Shown here: positions 478 to 57,010 of the stretch, in pieces
Position numbering within the stretch: position 1 is the first letter of the stretch
How the letters are laid out: every line of letters begins with the position of its first letter
Assembly: GCA_019115945.1 (NCBI GenBank)
Contig: DXCO01000035.1
Coordinates: 54,353-118,352, forward strand
DNA length: 64,000 nt
Direction: 5' to 3'
Source of the DNA: Candidatus Borkfalkia excrementavium
Lineage (GTDB): Bacteria; Bacillota; Clostridia; Christensenellales; Borkfalkiaceae
Notes under the pieces: generated by a model
Seen by the model: only the letters and a program-made list of their open reading frames with translations
The model's database searches: none
Told to the model about the DNA's origin: nothing
Translations under genes and position numbers: made by a program

Positions 478-2706
478 TCAATTTTCCCACCAGTCGAAAT
501 GATCGGATATCGTAGCGTTCTTTTTGGCGGATTTTGTGTAGACGACGGGGAGCCGGAGTTCTTTTCCGAATATTTTTTCGCCGCCGTCCGTCGTATAGTA
601 AGGGATTACGGTATACTCGTATTTTTCATTCGGAAGGATATTGTCATCTGTCAAAACCTGCTCGTGTTTTCCTTCATAAATCACCTTGCTTTTACCGTTC
701 AATGTCCGTTTTACCATAATATCATAGTACTCTGTCTGAGATAATTTGATAAAAACGCGATTATTTTTATATGCAACGGATGCTTTTGCTTCAGGGGCCT
801 TGAAAAATTTAGAGGTCTCTTTTGGCAGATTGCTCTTTCTGAAAATATCCGTAAAGGTATATTTTTTCGGCTGATTTTCGTCCGCCCGCACCACGGAATG
901 GTATTTGTCGAATGAGATTTTATCTAAAACGACCTCCTCAATATTCTCAGAATCGTGAAAGGAAGTCGGCCTCTTGTCCTTATAAATTTTTTTATCGATC
1001 AGCATTGCGTAATGGCAGGGAAGCCCTCCGCCCGTTATATCCGTAAGTTTGTTGTCGGCGTTTCCCATCCAGATATTGACGGTATAGTCTTTCGTATAGG
1101 AAACGGCGTATGCGTCCGTATTTCCCTTTTCGCTGCCGCAGGTGCCCGTTTTTGCGCAGACATCGAAGGGAAGTGCGGCCAGTTTTTTTGCGGTGCCCTC
1201 TTTTGCGGCGCTTTTTAAAATGTCGTTGACGATATAGACGGTATCTTCCGAAAAAACTTTTACCGGCAGAAGTTTTCTTTCGTATACGATATTTCCCTCC
1301 GAGTCCTCGATTTTTCTGATGAAGGCGGGCGGGCTGAAATATCCTTCGTTTGCAAACACGGAAAAGGCTCCCGTCAGTTGAGTCAGTGTGTATCCTTCGC
1401 TGACGCCGCCCAAAGCAAGTGATAGATTTTTATCTTTGCCGGATAGCCGCAGCCCCATTCGGGACAGATACTTTTCGCTCTTGTCGATCCCGAGCCGCGA
1501 AAGGGTCTTTACGGCCGGCACGTTCAGGCTTTGCGCAAGCGCCTGTCTGCATGTCACGTAGCCATGGTAAACATCTTTGTAATTGGACGGCGCATATCCG
1601 TCGAAGTTCGTCTTTTCATCTGCGATCGGAGTGCAGGCGGAAAGCAGATTTTCTTCAATGGCGGGCGCGTAGACGGCGAGCGGCTTGAACAGGGAACCGG
1701 GCTGGCGGGGGATATTCCCTTCGGTAGAGTAATAAGCGGCGATCCCGCAGGTCGCATTGTTTTCCACGACTATGCTTTTTCCCGACCGGTCGGCGTCCGT
1801 TTTCAGATTTTCCACATAATTTTGAAGCCCGCTGTCCATATAGGTGTAAATTTTATATCCTCGGGTGAAGGCGTAGGGCGAATAAATGGGCAGGTTTTCA
1901 AATTCCTCATAGGCGCACTGCAGGTACGATTTCGATGCGATTCCGTTGTCCTTTTTTTCGGGTAAAGGCGAAAGGATTTCTTTTTCGTAATCCGATTCGG
2001 AAATATAGCCTTGTTCGCGCATTCTTTTGAGCACGGCGTTTCGCGCGGAGAGGCATTTTTGCGGATTTATGAAGGGGGAATAATTTCCCGGCGAACGTAT
2101 GACTGCGGCAAGCATTGCGCTCTCTGCCTGCGATAGGCTTTCGGCGTCTTTCCCGAAATAATAGTTCGAAGCGCTTGCGATCCCGTAACAGTTGTGCCCG
2201 AAATAGATGGTATTCAGGTACATTTCAAGGATTTCGTCTTTTGAATACTTTTTTTCGAGCGCTCGCGTCAGTTTGATCTCTTTCAGTTTTCTCGACAAAG
2301 TTTTTTCGTTGGTGAGGTGGGTATTTTTTACGAGTTGCTGGCTGATTGTCGAGGCCCCCTGTTTGAAAGAGCGCGAGGTCAGATTTTTCAGGGTCGCTTT
2401 TGCGATGCGCGCATAGTCGAGGCCGTTATGTTTATAAAAGCGCTTGTCCTCCGTAGAGATGAAGGCGTTTTTTACGTGATCGGGCAGGCCGGAAAGTTTT
2501 ACTTTCTTGTTCGCGTTTTCAGAGGAAACGTCCGCGATCTTTTCGTCCGCTGCGTTGTAAACGGTGGCGTAACTTTCGGAAAGATATAGTTTGCCTTCAT
2601 CCAGCCGGCTGTTTTTTGTCGTGATGAAATAGAAAGCCGTTCCCGCGATCGCCGCGATCGCGACAAGGGCGAGGAAAACGATCAAAATCCTTCTCAATAT
2701 TTTCAT
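478..2706 (-). CDS. Class A penicillin-binding protein (transglycosylase/transpeptidase)
   Basis: N-terminal TM, GT51 motifs (EDKRFYKHNGLD, GASTISQQLVKN), transpeptidase motifs (RQPGSLFKP, KTGT). Start set at internal Met MKILRRILIVF rather than the 2811 ORF start. Confidence 0.92.
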   Translation of the reverse strand: MKILRRILIVFLALVAIAAIAGTAFYFITTKNSRLDEGKLYLSESYATVYNAADEKIADVSSENANKKVKLSGLPDHVKNAFISTEDKRFYKHNGLDYARIAKATLKNLTSRSFKQGASTISQQLVKNTHLTNEKTLSRKLKEIKLTRALEKKYSKDEILEMYLNTIYFGHNCYGIASASNYYFGKDAESLSQAESAMLAAVIRSPGNYSPFINPQKCLSARNAVLKRMREQGYISESDYEKEILSPLPEKKDNGIASKSYLQCAYEEFENLPIYSPYAFTRGYKIYTYMDSGLQNYVENLKTDADRSGKSIVVENNATCGIAAYYSTEGNIPRQPGSLFKPLAVYAPAIEENLLSACTPIADEKTNFDGYAPSNYKDVYHGYVTCRQALAQSLNVPAVKTLSRLGIDKSEKYLSRMGLRLSGKDKNLSLALGGVSEGYTLTQLTGAFSVFANEGYFSPPAFIRKIEDSEGNIVYERKLLPVKVFSEDTVYIVNDILKSAAKEGTAKKLAALPFDVCAKTGTCGSEKGNTDAYAVSYTKDYTVNIWMGNADNKLTDITGGGLPCHYAMLIDKKIYKDKRPTSFHDSENIEEVVLDKISFDKYHSVVRADENQPKKYTFTDIFRKSNLPKETSKFFKAPEAKASVAYKNNRVFIKLSQTEYYDIMVKRTLNGKSKVIYEGKHEQVLTDDNILPNEKYEYTVIPYYTTDGGEKIFGKELRLPVVYTKSAKKNATISDHFDWWEN

Positions 2707-2775
2707 TGTATATACTCCGTTTACAGTATTTGAAATTTCATAAAAATTATTTAAGCGTGAACGAAAGCGAAAGAC

Positions 2776-2804
2776 TTGAAAAATTTCCTCAAAAAAGTTA
2801 TAAT
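2776..2804 (+). promoter_or_regulatory. Putative sigma-A promoter for miaB-mutS-mutL operon
   Basis: TTGAAA (2776-2781), 17 nt spacer, TATAAT (2799-2804), about 30 nt upstream of miaB ATG. Confidence 0.6.
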
Positions 2805-2834
2805 AGAGCATGAATTTAAGCGATACGGTACTTT

Positions 2835-4160
2835 ATGGAAAAATATTATCACATCGTTACGTACGGCTGTCAGATGAACGTACACGAGTCGGAAAAGATC
2901 GCGGGGATCCTGCGTGCAAAGGGATATGTTGCCTGCGACGGTGCGGAAGAGGCGGATATCGTCGTATTCAATACCTGTTGCATCCGCGAGAACGCGGAAA
3001 ATCACGCTTACGGAAATATAGGGGCGTTAAAAAAACTGAAAAGATCCCGTCCCGAAATGCTGATCGCGGTGGGCGGCTGCATGACGCAGCAGGAGGGCGC
3101 CGCAGACAGGCTGCGGAAAAAGTTTCCCTTTGTGGATATCGTTTTCGGGACGCATAATCTGACCGCATTGGGCGATCTGATCGATCGCAAAACCGCGCAA
3201 AAGAAAGCAGTCGTGGAGATCGGTCGGGAAGAGCCCGTTTCGGATGAAGACGAGGATATTTCTTTCCGCACGAGTTATCCCAACGCATGGGTCAACATCA
3301 TGTACGGGTGCAATAATTTCTGTTCCTATTGCATCGTGCCTTACGTGCGGGGGCGCGAACGCAGCCGCCGTCCGGACAATATACTTTCCGAAGTCAGTGC
3401 CTTGCTCGATGGCGGCTATAAAGAAATTACCCTTTTGGGGCAGAACGTCAATTCTTATGGCAACGATATGGGCGGCGCCTTTTCCTTTCCCGGGCTTTTG
3501 GATCGGATCTGCGAAAGAAAGGGAAAATACAGGCTCCGTTTTATGACCAGCAACCCCAAAGATTTCGGCGAGCCGCTCATCCGTTCGATCGAAAAAAACG
3601 AACAGATCTGCCATCTTGTCCATCTTCCCGTGCAGGCGGGGTCGGACAGGATCCTGAAACTGATGAACCGAAAGTATACGGCTTCGGAATACCTGAAGAA
3701 AGTGGAACTTTTAAGAAAAATCGTGCCCGATTGCCAACTGACGTCGGACATCATGGTCGGGTTCCCCACGGAGACGGAGGAAGATTTCCGTGCGACGCTC
3801 GACCTTGTCAGAGAGGCGGATTTTTCTACTGCGTTCACGTTCGTATATTCGCCTCGGAGCGGCACGAAAGCGGCGGCCATGGAGGGGCAGATCCCCGAAG
3901 AGGTAAAAAAAGAGCGCATCATGCGCCTGGTGGAAGCGGTCAATGCGCGGACGAGGGAAAAATCTTCGGCATATCTCGGCAAAACGGCGGAGATTCTGTG
4001 CGAGGATTTCGACGAGAAAAAGAGCCTGTATCTGGGGCGCGACGAATACGGCAGGATGGGCTATTTTAAGAGCGATGCCGACGTTCGCGGACGATTTGTG
4101 AAACTGAAAATCAATGATGCATCGGGCGTTTCGCTCTACGGCGATCTGGTCGAAGAATAA
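2835..4160 (+). CDS. miaB: tRNA-2-methylthio-N6-dimethylallyladenosine synthase MiaB
   Basis: TYGCQMNVHESE, radical SAM CNNFCSYCIVP, C-terminal TRAM region; adjacent to mutS. Confidence 0.95.
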   Translation: MEKYYHIVTYGCQMNVHESEKIAGILRAKGYVACDGAEEADIVVFNTCCIRENAENHAYGNIGALKKLKRSRPEMLIAVGGCMTQQEGAADRLRKKFPFVDIVFGTHNLTALGDLIDRKTAQKKAVVEIGREEPVSDEDEDISFRTSYPNAWVNIMYGCNNFCSYCIVPYVRGRERSRRPDNILSEVSALLDGGYKEITLLGQNVNSYGNDMGGAFSFPGLLDRICERKGKYRLRFMTSNPKDFGEPLIRSIEKNEQICHLVHLPVQAGSDRILKLMNRKYTASEYLKKVELLRKIVPDCQLTSDIMVGFPTETEEDFRATLDLVREADFSTAFTFVYSPRSGTKAAAMEGQIPEEVKKERIMRLVEAVNARTREKSSAYLGKTAEILCEDFDEKKSLYLGRDEYGRMGYFKSDADVRGRFVKLKINDASGVSLYGDLVEE

Positions 4161-4175
4161 ACAGAGGATGAAGAT

Positions 4176-6779
4176 ATGAGCAGCGGATTGTCGCCGATGA
4201 TGCGGCACTATCTGGAAGTAAAAGAAAAGTATAAGGATTGCGTGGTATTTTACCGTCTCGGCGATTTTTACGAGATGTTTTTCGACGACGCGATCGAAGT
4301 GTCGCGCCTTTTGGACCTTACCTTGACGGGAAGAGACTGCGGGCTTTCAGAGCGCGCGCCTATGTGCGGGATCCCGTTTCATGCGGCGGATACTTACGTT
4401 GCAAAATTGGTCGCGCTCGGCAAAAAGGTCGCGATCTGCGAACAATTATCCGATCCCGCAACCAGTAAGGGGATCGTCGAAAGAGGGGTGATCCGGGTCA
4501 TATCGGCGGGTACGCTCATCGAAGAATCCCTTCTCGACGAAAAGAAAAACAATTATATTGCCTGCTGTTATAAAGAAAAGGAAAAAAATTCTGTCGCCTG
4601 GACGGATATCACCACGGGCGAGTTCAATGCGGCTATCTTTGACGGGGAAGGGGGATTGGAAGATCTTTGCGAGTATCTTTTCAAACTCGCTCCTGCGGAG
4701 ATCATTGCCAACGAAGAGTTTTTGCTCGCCTCCAAGGAAAACCCGAATCTTCGTTCGGGCGGGCTTCCCGCAGTATCCTGTTACGTGCCGTGGGCGTTCG
4801 GTTTAAGGCATGCGGAAAAAAATCTTCTTGAACAGTTCGGCACAAAAACCCTCGTTCCCTATGGAATAGACGAAAATCCAGAAGCGGTCTGCGCGGCCGG
4901 CGCGCTGATCGAATATCTTCGCGAAACACAAAAACATGCCCTGAAAAATATAGACGGGATCAGGCTTGTCAATAAAGATAAATATATGATGATCGACGGA
5001 GCGGCGATCAAAAATCTCGAATTGACCAAGACGCTCGGCGGAGGAAAGCGAAAGGGGTCTCTCCTGTGGCTGCTTGACAATACGCAGACCGCCATGGGCG
5101 CACGGCTGATGAATTCGGTGGTTCTGAATCCGCTCGGCAACAGAGAGGATATACTCTATCGGCTGGACGGAGTGGAAGAATTATTCAACGCCACGGTCGT
5201 GCGTGCGGGCCTTTCGGAAACGCTTGGGGGCGTGCATGACATCGAGAGGATCGCGGGAAAAATTTCCAACAACAATCTGACGCCGCGCGACTGCGTGAAT
5301 CTCGGCGCGTCGCTCGCGCTCGTTCCGGCGCTTCGTTTTCACCTTTCAGGGTTTACCTCCAAAGTGCTCAAAGACATTGTCGAAGGGTTGGGAGATTTTT
5401 CGGAACTGTCCGGTCTTTTGGCGAATGCCTTTATCGAAAATCCTCCCGTCAATGTTAAAGAGGGCGGATATATCAAAAAGGGATACAGTCAGGAACTGGA
5501 CGAACAGCGCGCCCTGCACGAGGGCGGTGCTCGCATGATCGCCGAAATGGAGGCGAGGGAACGGGAAGAAACGGGGATCCGCAACCTGAAGATCAAATAC
5601 AATCGGGTTTTCGGGTACGGGATAGAGGTGACGAATTCCTTCAAAGACAAGGTCCCGTACCGTTATCAGCGCCGTCAGACGCTCACCAATGCAGAGCGTT
5701 TTGTGACGGACGAACTCAAAGAACTGGAAACAAAAATCCTTTCGAGCGCGGAAAAGAGCCTCGCTTTGGAAATTTCCCTCTTTGAACAGATCAAGAGCAT
5801 TCTTGCCGAAAATATCGGGAAATTAAAATCGCTTTCTTCGGCAATCGCGCTTCTCGATTGCCTCTTGTCCTTTGCCTGCGTATCCAAAGAGCGCTCTTAT
5901 TGCCGTCCTCAGATCGTTTCCGCGGGAGCGGAAATGGTCATCAAAGACGGAAGACATCCCGTTGTGGAGGCGCTTTCGAAAGAACGCTTCGTGCCCAACG
6001 ATACGACGCTGGGAGATGATACGCGCACGATGGTCATTACGGGGCCGAACATGGCCGGCAAAAGCACATATATGCGCCAAACGGCCCTGATCGCCCTGAT
6101 GGCGCATATCGGATGTTTTGTTCCCGCGCGTTCGGCAAGCATCCCCGTGCTCGACCGCATCTTTACGCGCGTCGGGGCGAGCGACAATCTGATCCTCGAC
6201 CAGAGTACGTTTATGGTGGAAATGACGGAAGTCGCTTCGATTATCCGGAACGCTACGCCCGATTCACTGTTGATTCTCGACGAGGTGGGCAGGGGGACCA
6301 GCACGTACGACGGTCTGAGCATCGCGTGGGCGGTGCTCGAGTATCTGACGCAGAATATCCGCGCGAAGACGATGTTTTCCACGCATTATCATGAACTTAC
6401 GGAATTGGAAGGGAAGATAGACGGGATCAAAAATTATAAAGTTACGGTCAAAGAGACTGCCGGTTCCATCATTTTCCTGCGCAAGATCGTCCGGGGCGGA
6501 ACGAACAAGAGTTTCGGTATAGAAGTTGCACGACTTGCTGGCATTCCGCCGGCAGTGACTTCCCGCGCAAAAGAGATCTTGAAACAGTTGGAAAAAAGCG
6601 ATATAGCGAAAAACGGAAATCTTTCCGATGCGGATAGGGCGGCCGCGGGAAATGCGGAGCAGGCTCCTTCGGAGAGCGAAGCGGAGCGTATCCTTCGCGA
6701 GATCGACGTGAACAATCTCTCGCCGATGCAGGCGCTTCAGATCCTTGCGGACCTTACGGAGAGAGTGAAAGGGGAATAA
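4176..6779 (+). CDS. mutS: DNA mismatch repair protein MutS
   Basis: N-terminal FYRLGDFYEMF, Walker A TGPNMAGKSTYMRQ, DEVGRGTSTYDG, FSTHYHEL. Confidence 0.97.
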   Translation: MSSGLSPMMRHYLEVKEKYKDCVVFYRLGDFYEMFFDDAIEVSRLLDLTLTGRDCGLSERAPMCGIPFHAADTYVAKLVALGKKVAICEQLSDPATSKGIVERGVIRVISAGTLIEESLLDEKKNNYIACCYKEKEKNSVAWTDITTGEFNAAIFDGEGGLEDLCEYLFKLAPAEIIANEEFLLASKENPNLRSGGLPAVSCYVPWAFGLRHAEKNLLEQFGTKTLVPYGIDENPEAVCAAGALIEYLRETQKHALKNIDGIRLVNKDKYMMIDGAAIKNLELTKTLGGGKRKGSLLWLLDNTQTAMGARLMNSVVLNPLGNREDILYRLDGVEELFNATVVRAGLSETLGGVHDIERIAGKISNNNLTPRDCVNLGASLALVPALRFHLSGFTSKVLKDIVEGLGDFSELSGLLANAFIENPPVNVKEGGYIKKGYSQELDEQRALHEGGARMIAEMEAREREETGIRNLKIKYNRVFGYGIEVTNSFKDKVPYRYQRRQTLTNAERFVTDELKELETKILSSAEKSLALEISLFEQIKSILAENIGKLKSLSSAIALLDCLLSFACVSKERSYCRPQIVSAGAEMVIKDGRHPVVEALSKERFVPNDTTLGDDTRTMVITGPNMAGKSTYMRQTALIALMAHIGCFVPARSASIPVLDRIFTRVGASDNLILDQSTFMVEMTEVASIIRNATPDSLLILDEVGRGTSTYDGLSIAWAVLEYLTQNIRAKTMFSTHYHELTELEGKIDGIKNYKVTVKETAGSIIFLRKIVRGGTNKSFGIEVARLAGIPPAVTSRAKEILKQLEKSDIAKNGNLSDADRAAAGNAEQAPSESEAERILREIDVNNLSPMQALQILADLTERVKGE

Positions 6780-8741
6780 ATGGCGAAAATCAATATACTT
6801 GACAGCAACGTATATAACAGGATCGCCGCGGGAGAGGTCGTTGAACGTCCCGCTTCGGCGGTCAAAGAATTTGTCGAAAACAGCCTCGACGCCGGAGCAA
6901 AAAATATCGTGATCCGCATAGAGAGGGGCGGAAAGGATCTGATTTCCGTTTCAGACGACGGGGCGGGGATCGAAAAATCGGAAATGTATTCCGCATTTCT
7001 TCCGCACGCGACGAGTAAGATCGAAAAGGCGGAAGATCTCGATGCGATCACGACGCTGGGTTTTCGGGGCGAGGCACTCGCTTCCATCGCTTCCGTTTCT
7101 CGGGTCACTCTGCGCTCCAAGACTGCCGGGGAAGAGTCTGCCGGCGAACTTGTCTGTGCGGGCGGAAAGATGGGGGAGATATTGCCGTGCGCATTGAGCG
7201 GAGGGACGGAGATCGTTGCGGAAAATCTGTTTTACAATACGCCCGTCCGCGCAAAATTTATGAAGACGGACAAAGGGGAGGAGAGCGAGGTTTCCGCGGT
7301 CGTTTCCCGCTTCGTGCTCGGCAATCCTGAAGTTGCGTTCAAATATTACATTGACGGAAAATTGTCTTTGCAGTCTTTCGGCGGCGGACTGGACGAGGCG
7401 GTCGCGGCGGTTTATGGGGCGTCGGTGATTGCGGAATGCTATCAGATCGATGCGGTCAAACACGGGATCCGGCTGAGAGGGTATCTCGGCAAACCGACCT
7501 TTACCAAGGCAAACCGTACCTATCAAAGCGTATTTGTGAACGGCCGTTATGTCGTAAACAATACCATTTCTTCCGCAATTTCCAATGCGTATGCCAGTTA
7601 TCTGATGAAGCGCCAGTATCCTTTTTACGTACTGTTCGTAGACGTTCCGCCGGAAATCGTGGACGTCAATGTTCATCCGAATAAATCCGACGTCCGCTTT
7701 GAAAACAATCAGATCATTTACGGCAGTATTTATTCGGTCGTTTCCGCCGTTTTGGACGGAAATGCGTCGGCGATAGAATATGTCGTCGGCGGAACGGACG
7801 AGGCAGAGAAAGAAAAGTCTGCCGAGCATCCTTCAAACGGTGCGCTGCCCTCTTTTGATTCGGGCAAAATTACCGCCGATAGAAAGTTTGATCCCGGTTT
7901 GTCGGCGGAAGATTTGCGGAAAGGGGAAAAGGAAGAGAGAGCCTTTGCTTCTCCGACGTATACGATGCCCAAACGGCAAACGCCCGTCATGATAGAATTT
8001 CATGACAGCGCAGCGGTTTCGGAGCCTTTCAAACCTGAAAAAGCCGACCTTCAAAAGGCGGAAGAAAATTTTTCGGAAGATCTGCAAAAAACGACCGATA
8101 TTTTTGAAGAAAATAAGCGCTATCTCGACGCTTTGGAAAAAAAGGCGAAACAGCAAAAACTTATATTTGACAGCGCGGAATACAAAGGATGTCTTTTTAA
8201 CACTTATCTCATTTACGAAGCGGGCGACGATGCCTATATCATCGATCAGCACGCGGCGCACGAGCGCCTGATTTTTGACCGCCTACGCGCGGAGATGGAG
8301 GAGAGAAGAATTGTCCGTCAGCCGATGCTGGTGCCTTATATCGTCAATGCAAACCATGCAGAGGCACAATTTCTGTCGGACAATCTGACGAATATCGAAG
8401 AGATCGGGTTTGAGATCGAAGAATTCGGAGCTGGCAGTTTCAAAATTTCTTCCGTGCCTTTGGACCTGCAGGATATCGATCTTGACAGTTTTTTCCGCGA
8501 CCTTTTGGGCGAAATAGGAAATCTGAAGGGGATAAAACTGTCAGAACTTTTGCGGGATAAGATCGCCATGACTGCGTGCAAGCATGCGGTTAAAGGCGGG
8601 ATGTCTCTCACCGATTCGGAAAAAGAAAAATTATTTGAAATGCTCCGCGGCGATATGGGGCTGAAGTGTCCGCACGGCAGGCCGATCGCCGTAAAACTCA
8701 GTAAATATGAAATCGAAAAAATGTTCAAAAGGATTGTCTGA
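6780..8741 (+). CDS. mutL: DNA mismatch repair protein MutL
   Basis: IAAGEVVERPASAVKEFVENSLDAGA, DDGAGI, GFRGEALASI, NTPVRAKF; C-terminal QHAAHERL. Confidence 0.97.
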   Translation: MAKINILDSNVYNRIAAGEVVERPASAVKEFVENSLDAGAKNIVIRIERGGKDLISVSDDGAGIEKSEMYSAFLPHATSKIEKAEDLDAITTLGFRGEALASIASVSRVTLRSKTAGEESAGELVCAGGKMGEILPCALSGGTEIVAENLFYNTPVRAKFMKTDKGEESEVSAVVSRFVLGNPEVAFKYYIDGKLSLQSFGGGLDEAVAAVYGASVIAECYQIDAVKHGIRLRGYLGKPTFTKANRTYQSVFVNGRYVVNNTISSAISNAYASYLMKRQYPFYVLFVDVPPEIVDVNVHPNKSDVRFENNQIIYGSIYSVVSAVLDGNASAIEYVVGGTDEAEKEKSAEHPSNGALPSFDSGKITADRKFDPGLSAEDLRKGEKEERAFASPTYTMPKRQTPVMIEFHDSAAVSEPFKPEKADLQKAEENFSEDLQKTTDIFEENKRYLDALEKKAKQQKLIFDSAEYKGCLFNTYLIYEAGDDAYIIDQHAAHERLIFDRLRAEMEERRIVRQPMLVPYIVNANHAEAQFLSDNLTNIEEIGFEIEEFGAGSFKISSVPLDLQDIDLDSFFRDLLGEIGNLKGIKLSELLRDKIAMTACKHAVKGGMSLTDSEKEKLFEMLRGDMGLKCPHGRPIAVKLSKYEIEKMFKRIV

Positions 8742-9660
8742 AAAGACGGCCGTCGTGATCTGCGGTGCCACGGCCTCGGGCAAAACGGGTTTTTCCGTCG
8801 ATATCGCCGAAGCGGTCGGCGGAGAAGTTGTTTCGGCCGACTGCATGCTGGTATATAAAAGACTGAATATCGGCACGGCAAAACCGACGGTGGAAGAGCG
8901 CAAAGGGATTCCGCATTACATGATCGACGTAGCGGAACCGGAACAGGGTTATTCTGTAAGCGATTACGAAAACGCCGCTCTCCCGTTGGTTTATGATATC
9001 GTTCAAAGAGAAAAGGTGCCCGTTATCTGCGGGGGAACAGGGTTTTATATTCAATCTCTTTTGTTTGAAAGGCAAAACGGAAATGTTCCCGCCGATGCCC
9101 GCATCCGTGAAAAATACGAAAATCTTGCCCTCGAAAAGGGGAAAGGATACGTGCATTCGATGCTGGCCGAAGTTGATCCCGAAAGCGCGGAGAAATTGCA
9201 TCCGAACGATTTGAAGCGGGTCATCAGAGCACTGGAAATTTTTGAATGCACGGGCAGAAAAAAATCTGAACAGAGGGACGGATTTGAGCCTAGGATCCGT
9301 TACGCCGCTTTTGCCTTTGATTATCCCAGAAATATATTGTACGAGCGGATCGACAGGCGGGTGGATCAAATGCTTTCCGCGGGGTTGGTCGACGAAGTGG
9401 AGTCTCTGTACAGGGACGGAATAGATGAACGCTGTCAATGCATGCAGGGAATCGGATATAAAGAAGTGCTCGAATTTTTGAAAAACAGAATTTCGTACAG
9501 TACTATGTCAGACATGATCAAGCAAAATACGCGAAATTATGCAAAACGTCAGATCACTTTTTTTAAAAAGTTTCCGAATCTGATCTGGCTGGATCCGGAG
9601 GCGAAAGAGAACGTAGAGAGGGTTTCGGAATATGTTGTCGGCAGAAAAACTGATTTCTGA
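8707..9660 (+). CDS. miaA: tRNA dimethylallyltransferase MiaA
   Basis: GATASGKTGFSVDIA, SADCMLVYKRLNIGTAKP, GGTGFYIQ, QGIGYKE; overlaps mutL by 35 nt with this start. Confidence 0.94.
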   Translation: MKSKKCSKGLSEKTAVVICGATASGKTGFSVDIAEAVGGEVVSADCMLVYKRLNIGTAKPTVEERKGIPHYMIDVAEPEQGYSVSDYENAALPLVYDIVQREKVPVICGGTGFYIQSLLFERQNGNVPADARIREKYENLALEKGKGYVHSMLAEVDPESAEKLHPNDLKRVIRALEIFECTGRKKSEQRDGFEPRIRYAAFAFDYPRNILYERIDRRVDQMLSAGLVDEVESLYRDGIDERCQCMQGIGYKEVLEFLKNRISYSTMSDMIKQNTRNYAKRQITFFKKFPNLIWLDPEAKENVERVSEYVVGRKTDF

Positions 9661-51046: not shown

Positions 51047-52333
51047 ATGATCGATATCAATCTGCTCAGAAACAATCCCGACCTTGTACGGGAAAATATC
51101 AGAAAGAAGTTTCAGGATAAAAAACTTCCTCTCGTCGACGAAATCCTCGGGTTGGACGCGAAAAAGCGCGAATTGCAAAAAGAGGGAGATGCCCTTCGCG
51201 CAAAGCGCAACGCGGTCAGCGCGGAGATCGGAAAATTCATGAAGGAAAAGCGTAAAGAAGACGCGGAAAAGGCAAAGGCGGAAGTCGTCGCCGTCAACGA
51301 ACGCATCGCGGAGATCGAAAGGGAAGCGGAAGAAGTTTCTTCCAGACTGAAACAGGATATGATGTCCATCCCGAATATCATTGCCGACGATGTGCCGATC
51401 GGAAAAGATGATTCCCAGAATGTGGAGCGCCGTCGTTTTCTCGAGCCTGCAGAAAAGCCTTTCGAGGTTCCTTATCATATGGATATCCTCGATAAGTTGG
51501 GCGGGATCGATATCGACAGTGCCCGCCGTACCAGCGGGCAGGGATTCTATTACCTGATCGGCGACGTGGCGCGGCTTCATTCCGCAGTCTTGACGTATGC
51601 TCGCGATTTCATGATCGATAAAGGATTTACGTATGTGATCCCTCCCTTTATGATTCGCAGCGATGTAGTTTCCGGCGTCATGTCCTTTGAAGAAATGGAC
51701 GGGATGATGTATAAGATCGAGGGGGAAGACCTCTATCTGATCGGTACGAGCGAGCATTCAATGATCGGCAGGTTCATGAATACGGTCCTCGATGCGGATG
51801 CGTTGCCGCTCACGCTGACGAGTTATTCTCCCTGTTTCCGCAAGGAAAAGGGTGCGCACGGCATAGAGGAAAGGGGGATCTACCGCATCCATCAGTTTGA
51901 AAAACAGGAGATGATCGTCATTTGCAAACCGGAAGAGAGCAGCGACTGGTTTGAAAAATTGTACTCGTATACCGTCGAGTTGTTTGTGTCCATGAACATC
52001 CCCGTACGTACTTTGGAGTGTTGCTCGGGCGACCTTGCAGATCTTAAATATAAGAGCATTGACGTGGAGGCGTGGAGCCCCCGACAGAAAAAATATTTCG
52101 AAGTGGGCAGTTGTTCCAATCTGACGGATGCGCAGGCGCGCAGACTCGGGATCCGTTATAAGACGGAAAAGGGGAACGTATTCGCCCATACGCTGAACAA
52201 TACTGTCGTCGCTCCTCCGAGAATGTTGATCGCCCTTTTGGAAAATCATCTCAACGAGGACGGGAGCGTGAATATTCCGGAAGTCCTCCAAAAATATATG
52301 GGCGGAAAAAGTATCATTCTTCCGAAAAAGTAA
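51047..52333 (+). CDS. serS: Seryl-tRNA synthetase
   Basis: MIDINLLRNNPDLVRENIRKK, coiled-coil arm, class II motifs (CFRKEKGAHGIEERGIYRIHQFEKQEM). Confidence 0.96.
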   Translation: MIDINLLRNNPDLVRENIRKKFQDKKLPLVDEILGLDAKKRELQKEGDALRAKRNAVSAEIGKFMKEKRKEDAEKAKAEVVAVNERIAEIEREAEEVSSRLKQDMMSIPNIIADDVPIGKDDSQNVERRRFLEPAEKPFEVPYHMDILDKLGGIDIDSARRTSGQGFYYLIGDVARLHSAVLTYARDFMIDKGFTYVIPPFMIRSDVVSGVMSFEEMDGMMYKIEGEDLYLIGTSEHSMIGRFMNTVLDADALPLTLTSYSPCFRKEKGAHGIEERGIYRIHQFEKQEMIVICKPEESSDWFEKLYSYTVELFVSMNIPVRTLECCSGDLADLKYKSIDVEAWSPRQKKYFEVGSCSNLTDAQARRLGIRYKTEKGNVFAHTLNNTVVAPPRMLIALLENHLNEDGSVNIPEVLQKYMGGKSIILPKK

Positions 52334-52456
52334 AAATAAAATGAAGAACAGAACGGGCGCCGGATCGTACAGGCGCCCGTCTGATAATTTTAGCAAACGC
52401 TCTGAAAAATGTTTGCTTTTTTCAGAAAAATATTGTATCATATTAAAAGTTGAAAT

Positions 52457-52531
52457 GCTTCCGTAGTTAAATGGATATAACAGCCCCCTCCTAAGGGGCC
52501 GTTGTGGGTTCGATTCCCGCCGGGAGTACCA
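52457..52531 (+). tRNA. tRNA-Arg (anticodon CCT)
   Basis: Full cloverleaf foldable; anticodon arm GCCCC-CTCCTAA-GGGGC, T-arm GTGGG-TTCGATT-CCCGC, encoded CCA. Confidence 0.95.
52513..52531. repeat. att-like direct repeat, copy 1 (3' end of tRNA-Arg)
   Basis: ATTCCCGCCGGGAGTACCA, identical to 54133..54151. Confidence 0.92.
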
Positions 52532-52581
52532 AAAAACCGCTTGATTGAAAATAAAAATCAAGCGGTTTTTCTATGCCTTTT

Positions 52582-53730
52582 TTACATTTCAAAATCTCTT
52601 TTCTTTGCTCGTTTCAGCTCCAAGAAATCGAGATACTCTTCGTACTCTTCCAAAGTTTCAAAACCAAGCCGTTGCATTTCCGCTTTTAAGCGTCTGAATT
52701 CAGCCACAGTGTCGGTTTCTTCTGTTTCTGATACAGAATTCAATTCAAATGGTTTTACGGATTCTTGGGTCTTTTCTTCGGCTGAAAAGATACCGGCTAT
52801 TTTGTCTGCTGCCATCTTATCTGTGCTTCGCAAAGCATAGGCATAAATGTCGCTGGTCGTGCTTGCACGGGCGTGTCCCGCTCTCGCTGCAACGGTTACA
52901 ATGGGAACTCCTGCGGCGATCTGCAAAGTGATGTTCGTATGGCGCAAACTATGCAGGGAATAATGGTCGATATTCGCTTCCCGCAGCATCTTGTTCAGCC
53001 ACCCCGTGAATGTGCTTGGATAAAGCCGCTTTCCGTTCTCCTGCGTAAAAAGATAATCATTTTCTTCCATATAATCACCGAGTTCTGCGCGGCGTTTTGT
53101 TTGCCATTCTTTGTACTCTTTCAGCGTTTCAAGTAAGACTTCTGGAATTGCAAGAGTTCGTTTGGACATTTCCGTTTTAGGTTCTTTTTCTATCATTCCA
53201 AATCCCGTTACGGTCGTTACCGAACGGCTTACTGTAATCTCTCCCTTGTCAAAATCAATATCTTTCCATTCAAGTCCCGCAACTTCGCCGCGGCGAAAGC
53301 CCGCAAGCAGAAACAGAAGCATTGCAGATTTATAGCGAATATCGGGATAGTCCAAAATGAATTTGTAAAAGCGTTTGGCATCCTCGTCGGACATACATTC
53401 GATTTTATGAGGCGGGCGCTTCGGAAAATTGATATAATCCGCCGACGCATAGTTATCCGTAATCAAACGGTTTTTCTTTGCGAGGGATAGGACGGCTCGA
53501 ATGATACGCTTGAATTTATGTATCGTTTCGTAGGCGTAAGGTTCTTCCGTTATTTTCTCGTCAAAGAGTTCTTGGAACGGAATACCTGTCCTTTCAGCAA
53601 AGTCGCTGCTCCAATTTTTACTGACAGATTTACCGGCAAAAGCATTTGCCAGAGTGCAGCTTTGTATATATACTATAGGTATCTTTTTGAGTGGCGTTTC
53701 CGTTGTTACACGCAATAAAAAGCACTGCAC
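52582..53730 (-). pseudogene. Tyrosine recombinase/integrase, N-terminally truncated
   Basis: Catalytic C-terminal domain present (GFRRGEVAGLEWKDID, HSLRHTNITLQIAAGVPIVTVAARAGHARASTTSDIYAYA), but the arm-binding and first part of the core-binding domain are missing and replaced by out-of-frame lipoprotein leader sequence. Confidence 0.85.
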
Positions 53731-53782
53731 ATAAGATTGAAATTGTTGCGAGGAGAAATATTGCCAATAATTTTTTCTTCAT
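53630..53782 (-). pseudogene. 50-aa lipoprotein leader ORF, truncated at deletion junction
   Basis: MKKKLLAIFLLATISILCAVLFIACNNGNATQKDTYSIYTKLHSGKCFCR; signal peptide with lipobox LFIAC, SD aaaggagc; overlaps the integrase frame. Confidence 0.65.
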
Positions 53783-53806
53783 AGATATTGCTCCTTTTCA
53801 AATCAT

Positions 53807-53929
53807 TTATTTTTTCCGAATGCTGATCAAAATTTTCAGAATCAGCTGAATAATACGCAGGATTGCGATAATGAACTGTAATACGTATTCGACCAGATAA
53901 CTGCGGAAGATTTTTTTGACGGTGACCAT
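53807..53929 (-). CDS. Putative 40-aa hydrophobic/basic peptide
   Basis: MVTVKKIFRSYLVEYVLQFIIAILRIIQLILKILISIRKK; preceded by gcgaggaa SD-like sequence. Confidence 0.4.
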   Translation of the reverse strand: MVTVKKIFRSYLVEYVLQFIIAILRIIQLILKILISIRKK

Positions 53930-54010
53930 TTCCTCGCCGGTCAATTCGTTCTATTATTTGATTTTAATAGCAGTCACAATCATAACATTAGGTCTTTTTT
54001 TGCTGAATGA

Positions 54011-54048
54011 TTAAATTCCGCCCCTTGCTCTTGCAGGGGGGCGGAATT
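54011..54048. terminator. Strong hairpin near the distal end of the element
   Basis: aaaTTCCGCCCCttgctcttgcaGGGGGGCGGAAtttt. Confidence 0.65.
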
Positions 54049-54132
54049 TTGGTATTTCAATAGGGGAGGACCTGCCGCACGAAGTGCGGCGGTTCGCCCC
54101 GACGCAGTCGGCACAAGGGCGCAGCCCGAAGT

Positions 54133-54151
54133 ATTCCCGCCGGGAGTACCA
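54133..54151. repeat. att-like direct repeat, copy 2
   Basis: ATTCCCGCCGGGAGTACCA, identical to tRNA-Arg 3' end. Confidence 0.92.
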
Positions 54152-54609
54152 CTTTGACCACAAGATATTGTGTTCTTTTTCTTTATTTATACAATATTAA
54201 GGAGAAATTTTCAAAAATTATACCCGTCGTGCGATATACAAATGAATCAGATACACAAATGATCGACTTTTTTCTGATACCCGGCATTGATCACCGCGAT
54301 GTCGGAAGTGTCGTAAAAGTTGTTGAATACGGTGGTGTTTCCGGTGTTTCCCGTAGTTTTTCCGCCCTTATATTACATATTATATCACAGAACGCGTGGC
54401 TTTGTCAATGAAGGTTTGCATCTGCTGACGGACGATAACGGGCGGGCGGGGGATCTGTTTTATGATGCGCCTGATTTTTAGGAGCCTTCGGCGCGGCTGT
54501 GTGCGCCGAACCGAAGAATTGTAATAAAATTTTCGCAAGCGGACGGAAAATCGCTTGACACTTTCCGAATAGTTGTTATAATAGGATATGCTGTTTTTCG
54601 AAACAACAT

Positions 54610-54686
54610 TGAGGTGTAGCGCAGTTTGGTAGCGCGCTTGGTTAGGGACCAAGAGGTCGTGGGTTCAAGTCCCGTCACCTCAACCA
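54610..54686 (+). tRNA. tRNA-Pro (anticodon AGG)
   Basis: Acceptor TGAGGTG/CACCTCA, anticodon arm CTTGG-TTAGGGA-CCAAG, T-arm GTGGG-TTCAAGT-CCCGT, ACCA end. Confidence 0.93.
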
Positions 54687-54736: not shown

Positions 54737-54772
54737 TAAATCTTACAGAATTTTACAGGAGAAGATGTGTTT

Positions 54773-57010
54773 ATGAGAAAGCGCCTGGCATCACTTTTTG
54801 CTGTTACGATAGGGCTGCTCTTATCGTTGGGGATTTTGACGGCTTGCAGGTTGCAACAGGAACCCGATCGGTTTCCGATATCATTTTATGACGACACGCA
54901 GCTTGTCGATGTCGTTGAAACGAGCGGGAACGAGCGGATCCGCCTTCCGGAGGCGTCGGAAAAAGAAGGATATATTTTTTGCGGTTGGTTTTTCGATCGG
55001 GACAGCTGGCAGGAACAGCTGACCGAGGATACTTATGCGGATCGGGCGCTGACGGCTGCGGTCGATGTCTATGCATATTACCGACAGGAGGAACCGTCGC
55101 AGCCTGAATCGCCTGCAACGTACACGGTGACGTTTGAAACAAACGGCGGGACGGCGGTGGCGCCTGTGACGACGTCGCTGATCGAAAGCGAACCGAAGAC
55201 GAGCCAAAGCGGCTATACGTTTTCGGGGTGGTATACGGAGAGCGGCTTTGTCAACAAGGCGGAATTTCCCTACGAAGTGACAAAGGCGCAGACGCTGTAC
55301 GCCAAATGGGAAAAGAACAAGTACACGGTGACGTTTGAAACGAACGGCGGGACGGCAGTGGCGCCCGTGACGACGTCGCTGATCGAAAGCGAACCGAAGA
55401 CGAGCCAAAGCGGCTATACGTTTTTGGGGTGGTATACGGAGAGTAGCTTTGTCAACAAGGCGGAATTTCCCTACGAAGTGACGAAGGTGCAGACGCTGTA
55501 CGCCAAATGGGAAAAGAACGCGCCGGAATCGATCGTATTCACGGTGGACAAGAACGGTGTATTGACGGGCGTCAGCGGGATCTCGGCGCAGACTGCGCGC
55601 GTAGAAGTTCCGTCCGAAGTGAACGGGATCACGGTGACAGAGATTGCGAAAGATGTGTTCAAAGACAATCGGGAGATAGAAGCGCTGATCTTGCCCGATA
55701 CGGTCGGAACGCTCGGATATCGGATGTGCAGCGGATGCTCCGCGCTGAAAGAACTGCGTCTTCCTTCCGGTCTTACGGTCATTCCGGACGAGGCATTTGC
55801 AGATTGTGTATCGCTGAAGGCGGTCGTTTTCCCCGATACGCTTGTTCAGATCCGTTCGGATGCGTTCAGCGGCTCGGGATTGACTGAATTTATTGCGCCG
55901 CGGGCGCTGGCTTCCATTTGGCTAAATGCATTTATGGGTTGCCGGGATCTTGAAAAAATCGACCTTGGACAGGTGCAGAGCATCCGTTCCGGCGCGTTCC
56001 AGGATTGCACGGCGCTGAAAGCTGTCAAAATTCCCGAAACAGTCGTATCGCTGACGAACGAAACGTATATTTTCGGCGGTTGCACGTCTCTGAAGACGAT
56101 CGATATGCCGGATAATCCTGTTCCGATCAGCTATACCTTATTGAACGGATCGGGCTATTATAACGATCCCGCGAATTGGGAAAACGGCGTTCTTTACGTT
56201 GACGGATATCTTGTGGATACGAACGATACGTTCCTGAACGTTACGGAGTACGCAGTGCGGGAGGGAACGATCGTCATCGCTGACAACGCATTCTATACGC
56301 CGGGATATGGCAGCAAACTCAAAACGTTGTCATTGCCGCAGCCTTTGCGTCATATCGGCAAGGCGGCGTTTTCCAAGTGTGTGTCGTTGGCGGAAATCGA
56401 TATGAAGGACGGCATTCGTTCTATCGGCTACAATGCGTTCGCCGGCACGGTATATGAAAAGAATGAAAAAAACTGGACAGACAACGGGCTCTATCTCGGA
56501 AATTGGTTGATCGCTGTCAAAAAGGTTTCCATGACGTCTTTCACCGTCCGCGAAGGAACGGTTGGCGTGGCGGACGCGAATGATGAGAGCGCCGGTTCGC
56601 TGTTCCCTTCTTTGGCGAGGAAAATTACTTCGTTGACGCTGCCTTCTTCGCTGAAATATATCGGTGTGCGGAGCTTTGCCCGTACTCAAATTACCGAAGT
56701 GACGCTTCCGAAGGGATTGCTGCAGATCGGGAAGGGCGCTTTTTATAGCTGTTCTTTTTTACAGAACGTCAATCTTGGCGATTGTGCTTCTCTGGAGAGT
56801 ATCGGCGATATGGCATTTCAGGAATGCATGATCGGAGAGATCGCCATTCCGGAAAGCGTAACGAAAATGGGCGAGCTGGTGTTCAATCATAATACGGTGG
56901 ATCTGACGATCCGCTGCGCTGTTTCCGAAAAACCCGAGGGGTGGGACAGCGATTGGGCGTACTCCTACCGGCAGGGCGTGACCGTCACGGTAGAGTGGAA
57001 AAAAGCATAA
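54773..57010 (+). CDS. BspA-like leucine-rich-repeat surface lipoprotein with two Listeria-Bacteroides (InlB B) repeats
   Basis: Lipobox LTAC; two TVTFETNGGTAVAPVTTSLIESEPKTSQSGYTFxGWYTESxFVNKAEFPYEVTKxQTLYAKWEKN units; BspA-type LRRs. Confidence 0.9.
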   Translation: MRKRLASLFAVTIGLLLSLGILTACRLQQEPDRFPISFYDDTQLVDVVETSGNERIRLPEASEKEGYIFCGWFFDRDSWQEQLTEDTYADRALTAAVDVYAYYRQEEPSQPESPATYTVTFETNGGTAVAPVTTSLIESEPKTSQSGYTFSGWYTESGFVNKAEFPYEVTKAQTLYAKWEKNKYTVTFETNGGTAVAPVTTSLIESEPKTSQSGYTFLGWYTESSFVNKAEFPYEVTKVQTLYAKWEKNAPESIVFTVDKNGVLTGVSGISAQTARVEVPSEVNGITVTEIAKDVFKDNREIEALILPDTVGTLGYRMCSGCSALKELRLPSGLTVIPDEAFADCVSLKAVVFPDTLVQIRSDAFSGSGLTEFIAPRALASIWLNAFMGCRDLEKIDLGQVQSIRSGAFQDCTALKAVKIPETVVSLTNETYIFGGCTSLKTIDMPDNPVPISYTLLNGSGYYNDPANWENGVLYVDGYLVDTNDTFLNVTEYAVREGTIVIADNAFYTPGYGSKLKTLSLPQPLRHIGKAAFSKCVSLAEIDMKDGIRSIGYNAFAGTVYEKNEKNWTDNGLYLGNWLIAVKKVSMTSFTVREGTVGVADANDESAGSLFPSLARKITSLTLPSSLKYIGVRSFARTQITEVTLPKGLLQIGKGAFYSCSFLQNVNLGDCASLESIGDMAFQECMIGEIAIPESVTKMGELVFNHNTVDLTIRCAVSEKPEGWDSDWAYSYRQGVTVTVEWKKA
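55121..55519 (+). repeat. Tandem 201-bp coding repeat (67 aa unit), about two copies
   Basis: TACACGGTGACGTTTGAAAC... at 55121 and again at 55322, with only a handful of differences. Confidence 0.92.

What the first reader, a model, noticed from the sequence alone, without database searches (positions are those of the whole stretch)
52457..54151. Collapsed integrative element in tRNA-Arg(CCU) with intact 19-bp att-like repeats
Seen directly: the last 19 bp of tRNA-Arg (ATTCCCGCCGGGAGTACCA, 52513-52531) recur exactly at 54133-54151, and a tyrosine integrase gene ends about 50 bp from the tRNA. Established: tyrosine recombinases of ICEs and phages commonly integrate at tRNA 3' ends and rebuild the tRNA from the att core. 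Inference: the 1.6 kb between repeats is what is left of a larger island after internal deletion.
Basis: partly seen in the sequence, partly recalled or inferred. Interest (0 to 1): 0.72.

Follow-up and report, generated by a model that had tools for sequence, protein, structure and literature searches.

The report
Island remnant beside duplicated tRNA end
Next to an arginine tRNA gene lie the broken remains of a mobile DNA island, and the second copy of the tRNA's end that looked like the island's border is more likely the tip of a small hairpin unit that this bacterial group carries beside many of its tRNA genes.

Summary
The sequence observation is right. tRNA-Arg(CCU) ends at 52531, its last 19 bp recur exactly at 54133-54151, these are the only two copies in the genome, and a tyrosine integrase ORF ends 51 bp from the tRNA. 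The integrase is broken: about 178 of ~473 N-terminal residues are missing, and it abuts fragments of a lipoprotein gene and a Zn-peptidase gene. Relatives with a single copy (serS-tRNA-Arg-PBP) and a distant taxon with a near-identical integrase end at tRNA-Arg(CCU) support a mobile island that decayed here. What does not hold well is that the 19-mers are this integrase's intact att sites. In nine relatives the displaced tRNA fragment starts at the anticodon loop (42-44 bp, CTCCTAAGG...), including all three with the same integrase end. The window's distal copy is 19 bp and is the 3' arm of a terminator-inverted-hairpin-direct unit. Their hairpins sit in the T loop and recur across different tRNAs and several families of the order. 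This tRNA-end hairpin system is the interesting part; how it arises is unknown.

The parts
51047..52333 (+). serS, conserved left neighbour of the tRNA in relatives
   Evidence: ORF list; synteny with L270, L271, L273
52413..52441 (+). sigma-70-like promoter of the tRNA (TTGCTT-17-TATCAT)
   Evidence: read by eye from sequence; same place in relatives
52457..52531 (+). tRNA-Arg(CCU), intact
   Evidence: ARAGORN, Rfam RF00005 59.9 bits
52513..52531 (+). proximal 19-mer (T loop to CCA)
52535..52570 (+). terminator-like hairpin of the integrase element's left end (AACCGCTTGATT..AATCAAGCGGTTTTT)
   Evidence: sequence; same segment next to tRNA-Arg(CCU) in G016, G034, L069 and, diverged, G037
52582..53655 (-). 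remnant of tyrosine integrase 'int A': catalytic domain kept, about 178 N-terminal residues missing
53669..53784 (-). N-terminal fragment of a lipoprotein gene, abutting the integrase remnant
   Evidence: 53669-53893 is 95% identical in G007, where it abuts a different integrase fragment
53806..53950 (-). C-terminal fragment of a Zn_peptidase_2-like membrane protein, longer in G002 and G004
   Evidence: PF04298, 3.2e-5 for the G002 relative, just below the curated cut-off
54014..54049 (+). terminator-like hairpin opening the tRNA-end unit
   Evidence: fold
54050..54132 (+). tRNA-end hairpin unit: degenerate inverted tRNA end (TGGTATTTC..), long hairpin 54063-54100, T-loop-like GGTTCG 54091-54096, short GC palindromes CCGACGCAGTCGG 54099-54111 and GGGCGCAGCCC 54117-54127
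   Evidence: RNA fold of 54045-54151 -48.9 kcal/mol, z=-3.7, 0 of 200 shuffles as good; DNA z=-2.7
54133..54151 (+). distal 19-mer, direct 3' arm of the hairpin unit
54152..54219 (+). remnant of the left end of a second element type ('type B', GACCACAAGATATTGTG..), its integrase absent
   Evidence: 84-90% identity of 54133-54219 (or its first 77 bp) to G007, G011, G002, G017
54610..54686 (+). tRNA-Pro(AGG), on other contigs than serS-tRNA-Arg in relatives

Best explanation
Two things are layered here. (1) Shown: a fragment of a tRNA-Arg(CCU)-targeting island, namely the island's left end with terminator plus the catalytic half of a tyrosine integrase, the rest gone and replaced by gene fragments. 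(2) Shown: a tRNA-end hairpin unit (terminator, degenerate inverted tRNA end, hairpins in the T-loop position, direct copy of T loop to CCA) followed by the left-end remnant of another island type. Inferred: the distal 19-mer belongs to the unit and is not, or is no longer, a working attR of this integrase. The likely order is type-B island at the tRNA, hairpin unit between tRNA and that island end (the state still seen in G031), entry of the int-A island at the tRNA, then a deletion that removed the front of the integrase, the cargo and the island's own right end. The integrase cannot act as it stands because its arm-binding and most of its core-binding region are missing (inference from family architecture).
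For: int A truncated at residue ~179 of ~473. Same left end at tRNA-Arg(CCU) in G016 (98% over 202 bp), G034 (97% over 209 bp), diverged in G037 (88% over 136 bp), and in distant L069 with leuS as neighbour (88% DNA over 586 bp, 84% aa). Single-copy sites in G010, G013, G043. Displaced tRNA fragments start at the anticodon loop in 9 of 9 relatives, including G016, G034 and G037. The distal 19-mer instead closes a structured unit (TGGTATTTC/GGGAGTACCA stem, z=-3.7). T-loop-bounded units without integrase occur at tRNA-Arg(CCU) in G031 and G044 and downstream of many other tRNAs: cognate 13-nt tail copies follow 14 of 100 tRNA genes against a mean of 0.165 (max 3) for non-cognate tails. The window's own genome has such a unit beside tRNA-Thr (L188).
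Against: The native right end and excision product of the int-A island were not seen; every contig breaks near it. The T loop is a recognised integration subsite (three subsites in Islander, PMC4383910), so a 19-bp T-loop core is possible in principle. In G016 the attR itself has a hairpin in its T loop (L155), so the window's copy could be an eroded attR with a hairpin in it. The window's hairpins share architecture with, but not clear sequence similarity to, the alpha/beta/gamma families. Fragments in G016, G034 and G037 lie on other contigs than the integrase end.
Confidence: 0.62

Rival explanations
1. One reading: the two 19-mers are attL and attR of the int-A island, which crosses over in the T loop; the 1.6 kb is what is left after internal deletion.
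For: Correct configuration (downstream, same orientation, integrase between, no other copies); truncated integrase; single-copy relatives; the T loop is a recognised subsite (PMC4383910).
Against: Same-type left ends go with anticodon-loop fragments of 42-44 bp in G016, G034, G037; the same duplication exists without integrase in G031 and G044; the distal copy closes a hairpin unit.
Confidence: 0.22
2. The distal copy is a real attR of the int-A island that began at the anticodon loop, later opened in its T loop by a mobile hairpin (as in G016 L155) and eroded on its left side.
For: G016 L155: CTCCTAAGG...GGTTCG, a ~52-bp beta hairpin, ATACCCGCCGGGAGTACCA; the window has GGTTCG followed by hairpins followed by ATTCCC.
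Against: The left 25 bp of the fragment and the island right end seen in G016/G034/G037 are absent; a terminator and an inverted tRNA end precede the unit as in integrase-free units.
Confidence: 0.13
3. Assembly artefact: the joint near 53665, where the integrase fragment meets the lipoprotein fragment, was made by the assembler.
For: Metagenome-style assembly (42 contigs, 89.8% complete); contigs of G007, G036 and G005 end in the same 53669-53917 segment.
Against: G007 independently joins the same segment to a different integrase fragment at the same tRNA; the segment is single-copy in this genome.
Confidence: 0.1

Closest known systems
tRNA-targeted genomic islands (Islander class, PMC4383910)
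   Same: tRNA gene, downstream fragment of it in the same orientation, tyrosine integrase between
   Different: 1.6 kb (below Islander's 2-kb limit), integrase broken, no cargo, fragment border in the T loop and embedded in a hairpin unit
Type-B tRNA-Arg(CCU) elements of the same genus (G017, G035, G004)
   Same: same tRNA, integrase at the tRNA-proximal end
   Different: they split the host tRNA at the anticodon loop and carry a complete replacement tRNA gene about 190 bp inside; the window keeps the host promoter and tRNA
tRNA-Tyr 3'-end repeats of the E. coli tyrT operon (RtT, from memory)
   Same: downstream tandem units that each contain the tRNA's last ~19 bp
   Different: here many tRNAs are affected, with inverted copies and T-loop hairpins; no Rfam RtT match was found
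REP palindromes and RAYT transposases (PMC3733652, PMC2817692)
   Same: short palindromes; the alpha insert read on the other strand starts GTAAG and has a GAGCGGC..GCCGC hairpin in its longer members
   Different: few copies per genome, tied to tRNA 3' ends, and not beside Y1 transposase genes

Membership tests
tRNA-targeted genomic island (Islander signature) | intact tRNA gene plus displaced fragment downstream, same orientation | tested here: met
tRNA-targeted genomic island (Islander signature) | integrase ORF between tRNA and fragment | tested here: met
   PF00589 hit, but the gene is truncated
tRNA-targeted genomic island (Islander signature) | length 2-200 kb | tested here: not met
   repeats 1,620 bp apart; limit from PMC4383910
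tRNA-targeted genomic island (Islander signature) | single-copy (empty) site in relatives | tested here: met
   G010, G013, G043
tRNA-targeted genomic island (Islander signature) | fragment border agrees with the integrase's crossover site elsewhere | tested here: inconclusive
   42-44-bp anticodon-loop fragments in G016, G034, G037 against 19 bp here, but on other contigs than the integrase end
functional integrative element (ICE or prophage) | full-length integrase | tested here: not met
functional integrative element (ICE or prophage) | conjugation or virion genes between the repeats | tested here: not met
   only gene fragments between the repeats
tRNA-end hairpin unit (defined in this report) | terminator, inverted tRNA end, T-loop hairpins, direct cognate 3' end | tested here: met
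   window 54014-54151, compared with L177, L187, L204 and others
tRNA-end hairpin unit (defined in this report) | sequence membership of alpha, beta or gamma insert family | tested here: inconclusive
   no significant DNA match to a fetched unit outside the 19-mer; layout closest to gamma by eye
REP element | GTAG/CGTC-type tag with hairpin | tested here: inconclusive
   alpha insert starts GTAAG on the other strand
REP element | high copy number and link to a RAYT/Y1 transposase | tested here: not met
   at most 8 exact alpha copies per genome; no full units beside Y1 genes; none of these genes in G044, which has units
RtT repeats of E. coli tyrT | Rfam RtT family match | tested here: not met
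   no hit even at E up to 1

The most novel reading that the evidence does not exclude
Bacteria of this order carry small mobile hairpin elements that insert into the T loop of tRNA gene copies. The T loop is nearly universal in sequence, so one element can enter tRNAs of any specificity; it is tolerated only in duplicate copies and leaves cognate tRNA ends beside working tRNA genes. The window's distal 'att' would be one such insertion rather than a recombinase core.
Probability: 0.4. Interest if true: 0.75.

Novelty: new variant of a known kind. Interest (0 to 1): 0.5.

Why it matters
A tRNA gene, a downstream copy of its 3' end and an integrase are the standard signature for calling islands. 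In this bacterial group copies of tRNA 3' ends also arise as hairpin units with no integrase, so island borders called by this rule can be wrong. If the T-loop hairpins prove mobile, they would be a site-specific miniature element that uses the most conserved sequence in tRNA genes as its target, testable by comparing strains.

Tried and rejected
A dispersed 19-mer was rejected (only two copies in the genome). A known RNA family for the units was rejected. Reading the units as right ends of type-B islands was rejected because those right ends are A+T-rich and end at CTCCTAAGG. Mobilisation by Y1/RAYT transposases got no support. The weak match of 54045-54083 to G012:C4 falls in an ORF recognised by eye as polyphosphate-kinase-like and was put down to chance. 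The cargo of the int-A island could not be read because contigs of G016, G034, G037 and L069 break in or next to the integrase end. Phage and plasmid collections gave only integrases below 60% identity. Literature searches for repeats or hairpins at tRNA 3' ends found no description of such units; the library is partial.

Full report
Observation. The repeat, the tRNA and the integrase are as described. The 19-mer occurs twice in the whole genome, both times here. The integrase ORF 52582-53730 belongs to the phage integrase family but is truncated: full-length relatives have about 473 residues and the match begins at residue ~179. Upstream of the break the ORF runs into the N-terminal fragment of a lipoprotein gene, preceded by the C-terminal fragment of a Zn_peptidase_2-like protein that is longer in G002 and G004. 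The same lipoprotein/peptidase segment (95% over 225 bp) in G007 abuts a different integrase fragment beside the same tRNA, so this is not simply one random joint.

Surroundings. In G010 and G013 the order is serS, tRNA-Arg(CCU), a penicillin-binding protein gene, with one 19-mer: the empty state. G010 continues collinearly with window 532-9530. In this genome the PBP sits at window 478-2706, beside a gene read as thiI, some 50 kb before serS, so the chromosome was rearranged with a breakpoint just right of the tRNA-Arg. The locus is a hot spot. Type-B elements (G017, G035, G004) split the tRNA at its anticodon loop and carry a complete replacement tRNA gene; in G004 its sequence differs from the host half. 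Integrase remnants of various lengths lie there in G002, G007, G018 and G034.

Who else has int A. The segment tRNA-terminator-integrase end recurs in G016 (98%) and G034 (97%), diverged in G037 (88%), and in a contig of another taxon (L069, leuS neighbour; 84% amino-acid and 88% DNA identity) at a tRNA-Arg(CCU) with a different anticodon stem. This is good evidence for a mobile element with a tRNA-Arg(CCU) target.

The distal copy. Displaced tRNA fragments were found in nine relatives; all start at the anticodon loop (CTCCTAAGG..., 42-44 bp; in G016 interrupted by a hairpin), including G016, G034 and G037. The window's copy starts in the T loop. It is the right arm of a structure: terminator 54014-54049, inverted tRNA-end remnant TGGTATTTC, a long hairpin ending in GGTTCG, two short GC palindromes, then ATTCCCGCCGGGAGTACCA. 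It folds better than all 200 shuffles (z=-3.7). Just right of it lies the left-end remnant of a type-B element. G031 has tRNA, hairpin unit, 19-mer (1 mismatch) and type-B left end with no integrase between; G044 has three exact copies in 171-bp units.

The units are general. The beta hairpin (GCCGAGGGG..GGGGTTTCGGC) was found at 20 sites in 13 of 40 genomes of the genus; the sites read lie at tRNA 3' ends, among them Ser, Val and Arg. The alpha hairpin was found in 8 of 297 genomes of the order, in several families; nearly all sites read are followed by a tRNA 3' end, the exceptions being one decayed site, one with only a T-loop-like sequence, and those nested inside other units. In G000, G015 and G038, 14 of 100 tRNA genes have a copy of their own last 13 nt within 600 bp downstream, against a mean of 0.165 (max 3) for tails of other tRNAs and none for reversed tails; all 14 are in G015 and G038 (7 of 41 and 7 of 39), and none of 20 in G000 passes this strict test, though its tRNA-Thr has a diverged unit. 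Copy boundaries lie 13-21 nt from the CCA end in 16 of 20 cases, 29-33 in the rest. Hairpin stems vary with compensation (beta: AU/UA/GC at one pair, CG/GC at another; alpha: four pairs with double changes); these are counts, not a test against phylogeny. Tandem units of G038 tRNA-Tyr and neighbouring gamma units differ by presence or absence of the alpha insert at the TTC of the T loop, the most direct sign that alpha moves or is exchanged as a piece.

Mechanism. Shown: island decay; duplicated tRNA ends with T-loop hairpins. Inferred: the 19-mer copy came with the unit, and the int-A island landed between tRNA and unit and then lost its right part. Not decided: whether hairpins insert into T loops by a transposase or recombinase acting in trans, or whether snap-back copying at hairpins makes the direct-inverted-direct pattern. 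Y1 transposase genes do not track the units.

Verdict. The finding is real; the island part is ordinary decay of a known kind of element; the 'intact att repeats' label is probably wrong; the tRNA-end hairpin units deserve separate study.

Noticed in passing
L028 (G016), L029 (G007), L030 (G015): Upstream of tRNA-Arg(CCU), behind what looks like the same promoter, tandem units of about 141-165 bp each hold a pseudo-tRNA-Arg with a beta hairpin in its T loop, followed by the intact tRNA.
   Followed up: partly
L032 (G017), L144 (G035), L044 (G004), L145 (G037): Elements that split tRNA-Arg(CCU) at the anticodon loop carry a complete replacement tRNA-Arg gene about 190-200 bp inside their left end; in G004 and G037 its sequence differs from the host's.
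   Followed up: partly
L226 and L259 (G038): Neighbouring tRNA-end units differ by presence or absence of an alpha hairpin at the T-loop TTC, a filled/empty site pair.
   Followed up: partly
window 478-2706 and 51047-52531: The penicillin-binding protein gene that follows tRNA-Arg in relatives sits 50 kb upstream of serS here: a rearrangement with a breakpoint just right of the tRNA-Arg.
   Followed up: partly
L142 (G034): The C-terminal 27 residues of int A are fused in frame to a different small ORF beside tRNA-Arg, another form of integrase loss at this site.
   Followed up: no
L070 integrase and relatives: The integrases of this subfamily seem to carry an XRE-like helix-turn-helix insert between core-binding parts; the HTH_3 match is weak (E=0.006, below cut-off). 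The window's break falls inside that region.
   Followed up: partly
window 54767-57010: Putative lipoprotein with two 199-bp repeats 96% identical (55120-55519), by eye of the InlB B-repeat type, and downstream leucine-rich-repeat-like sequence.
   Followed up: no
L041 (G009), L040 (G012): tRNA-Pro genes with downstream or upstream tandem units of 206-222 bp containing tRNA halves and different hairpins.
   Followed up: partly
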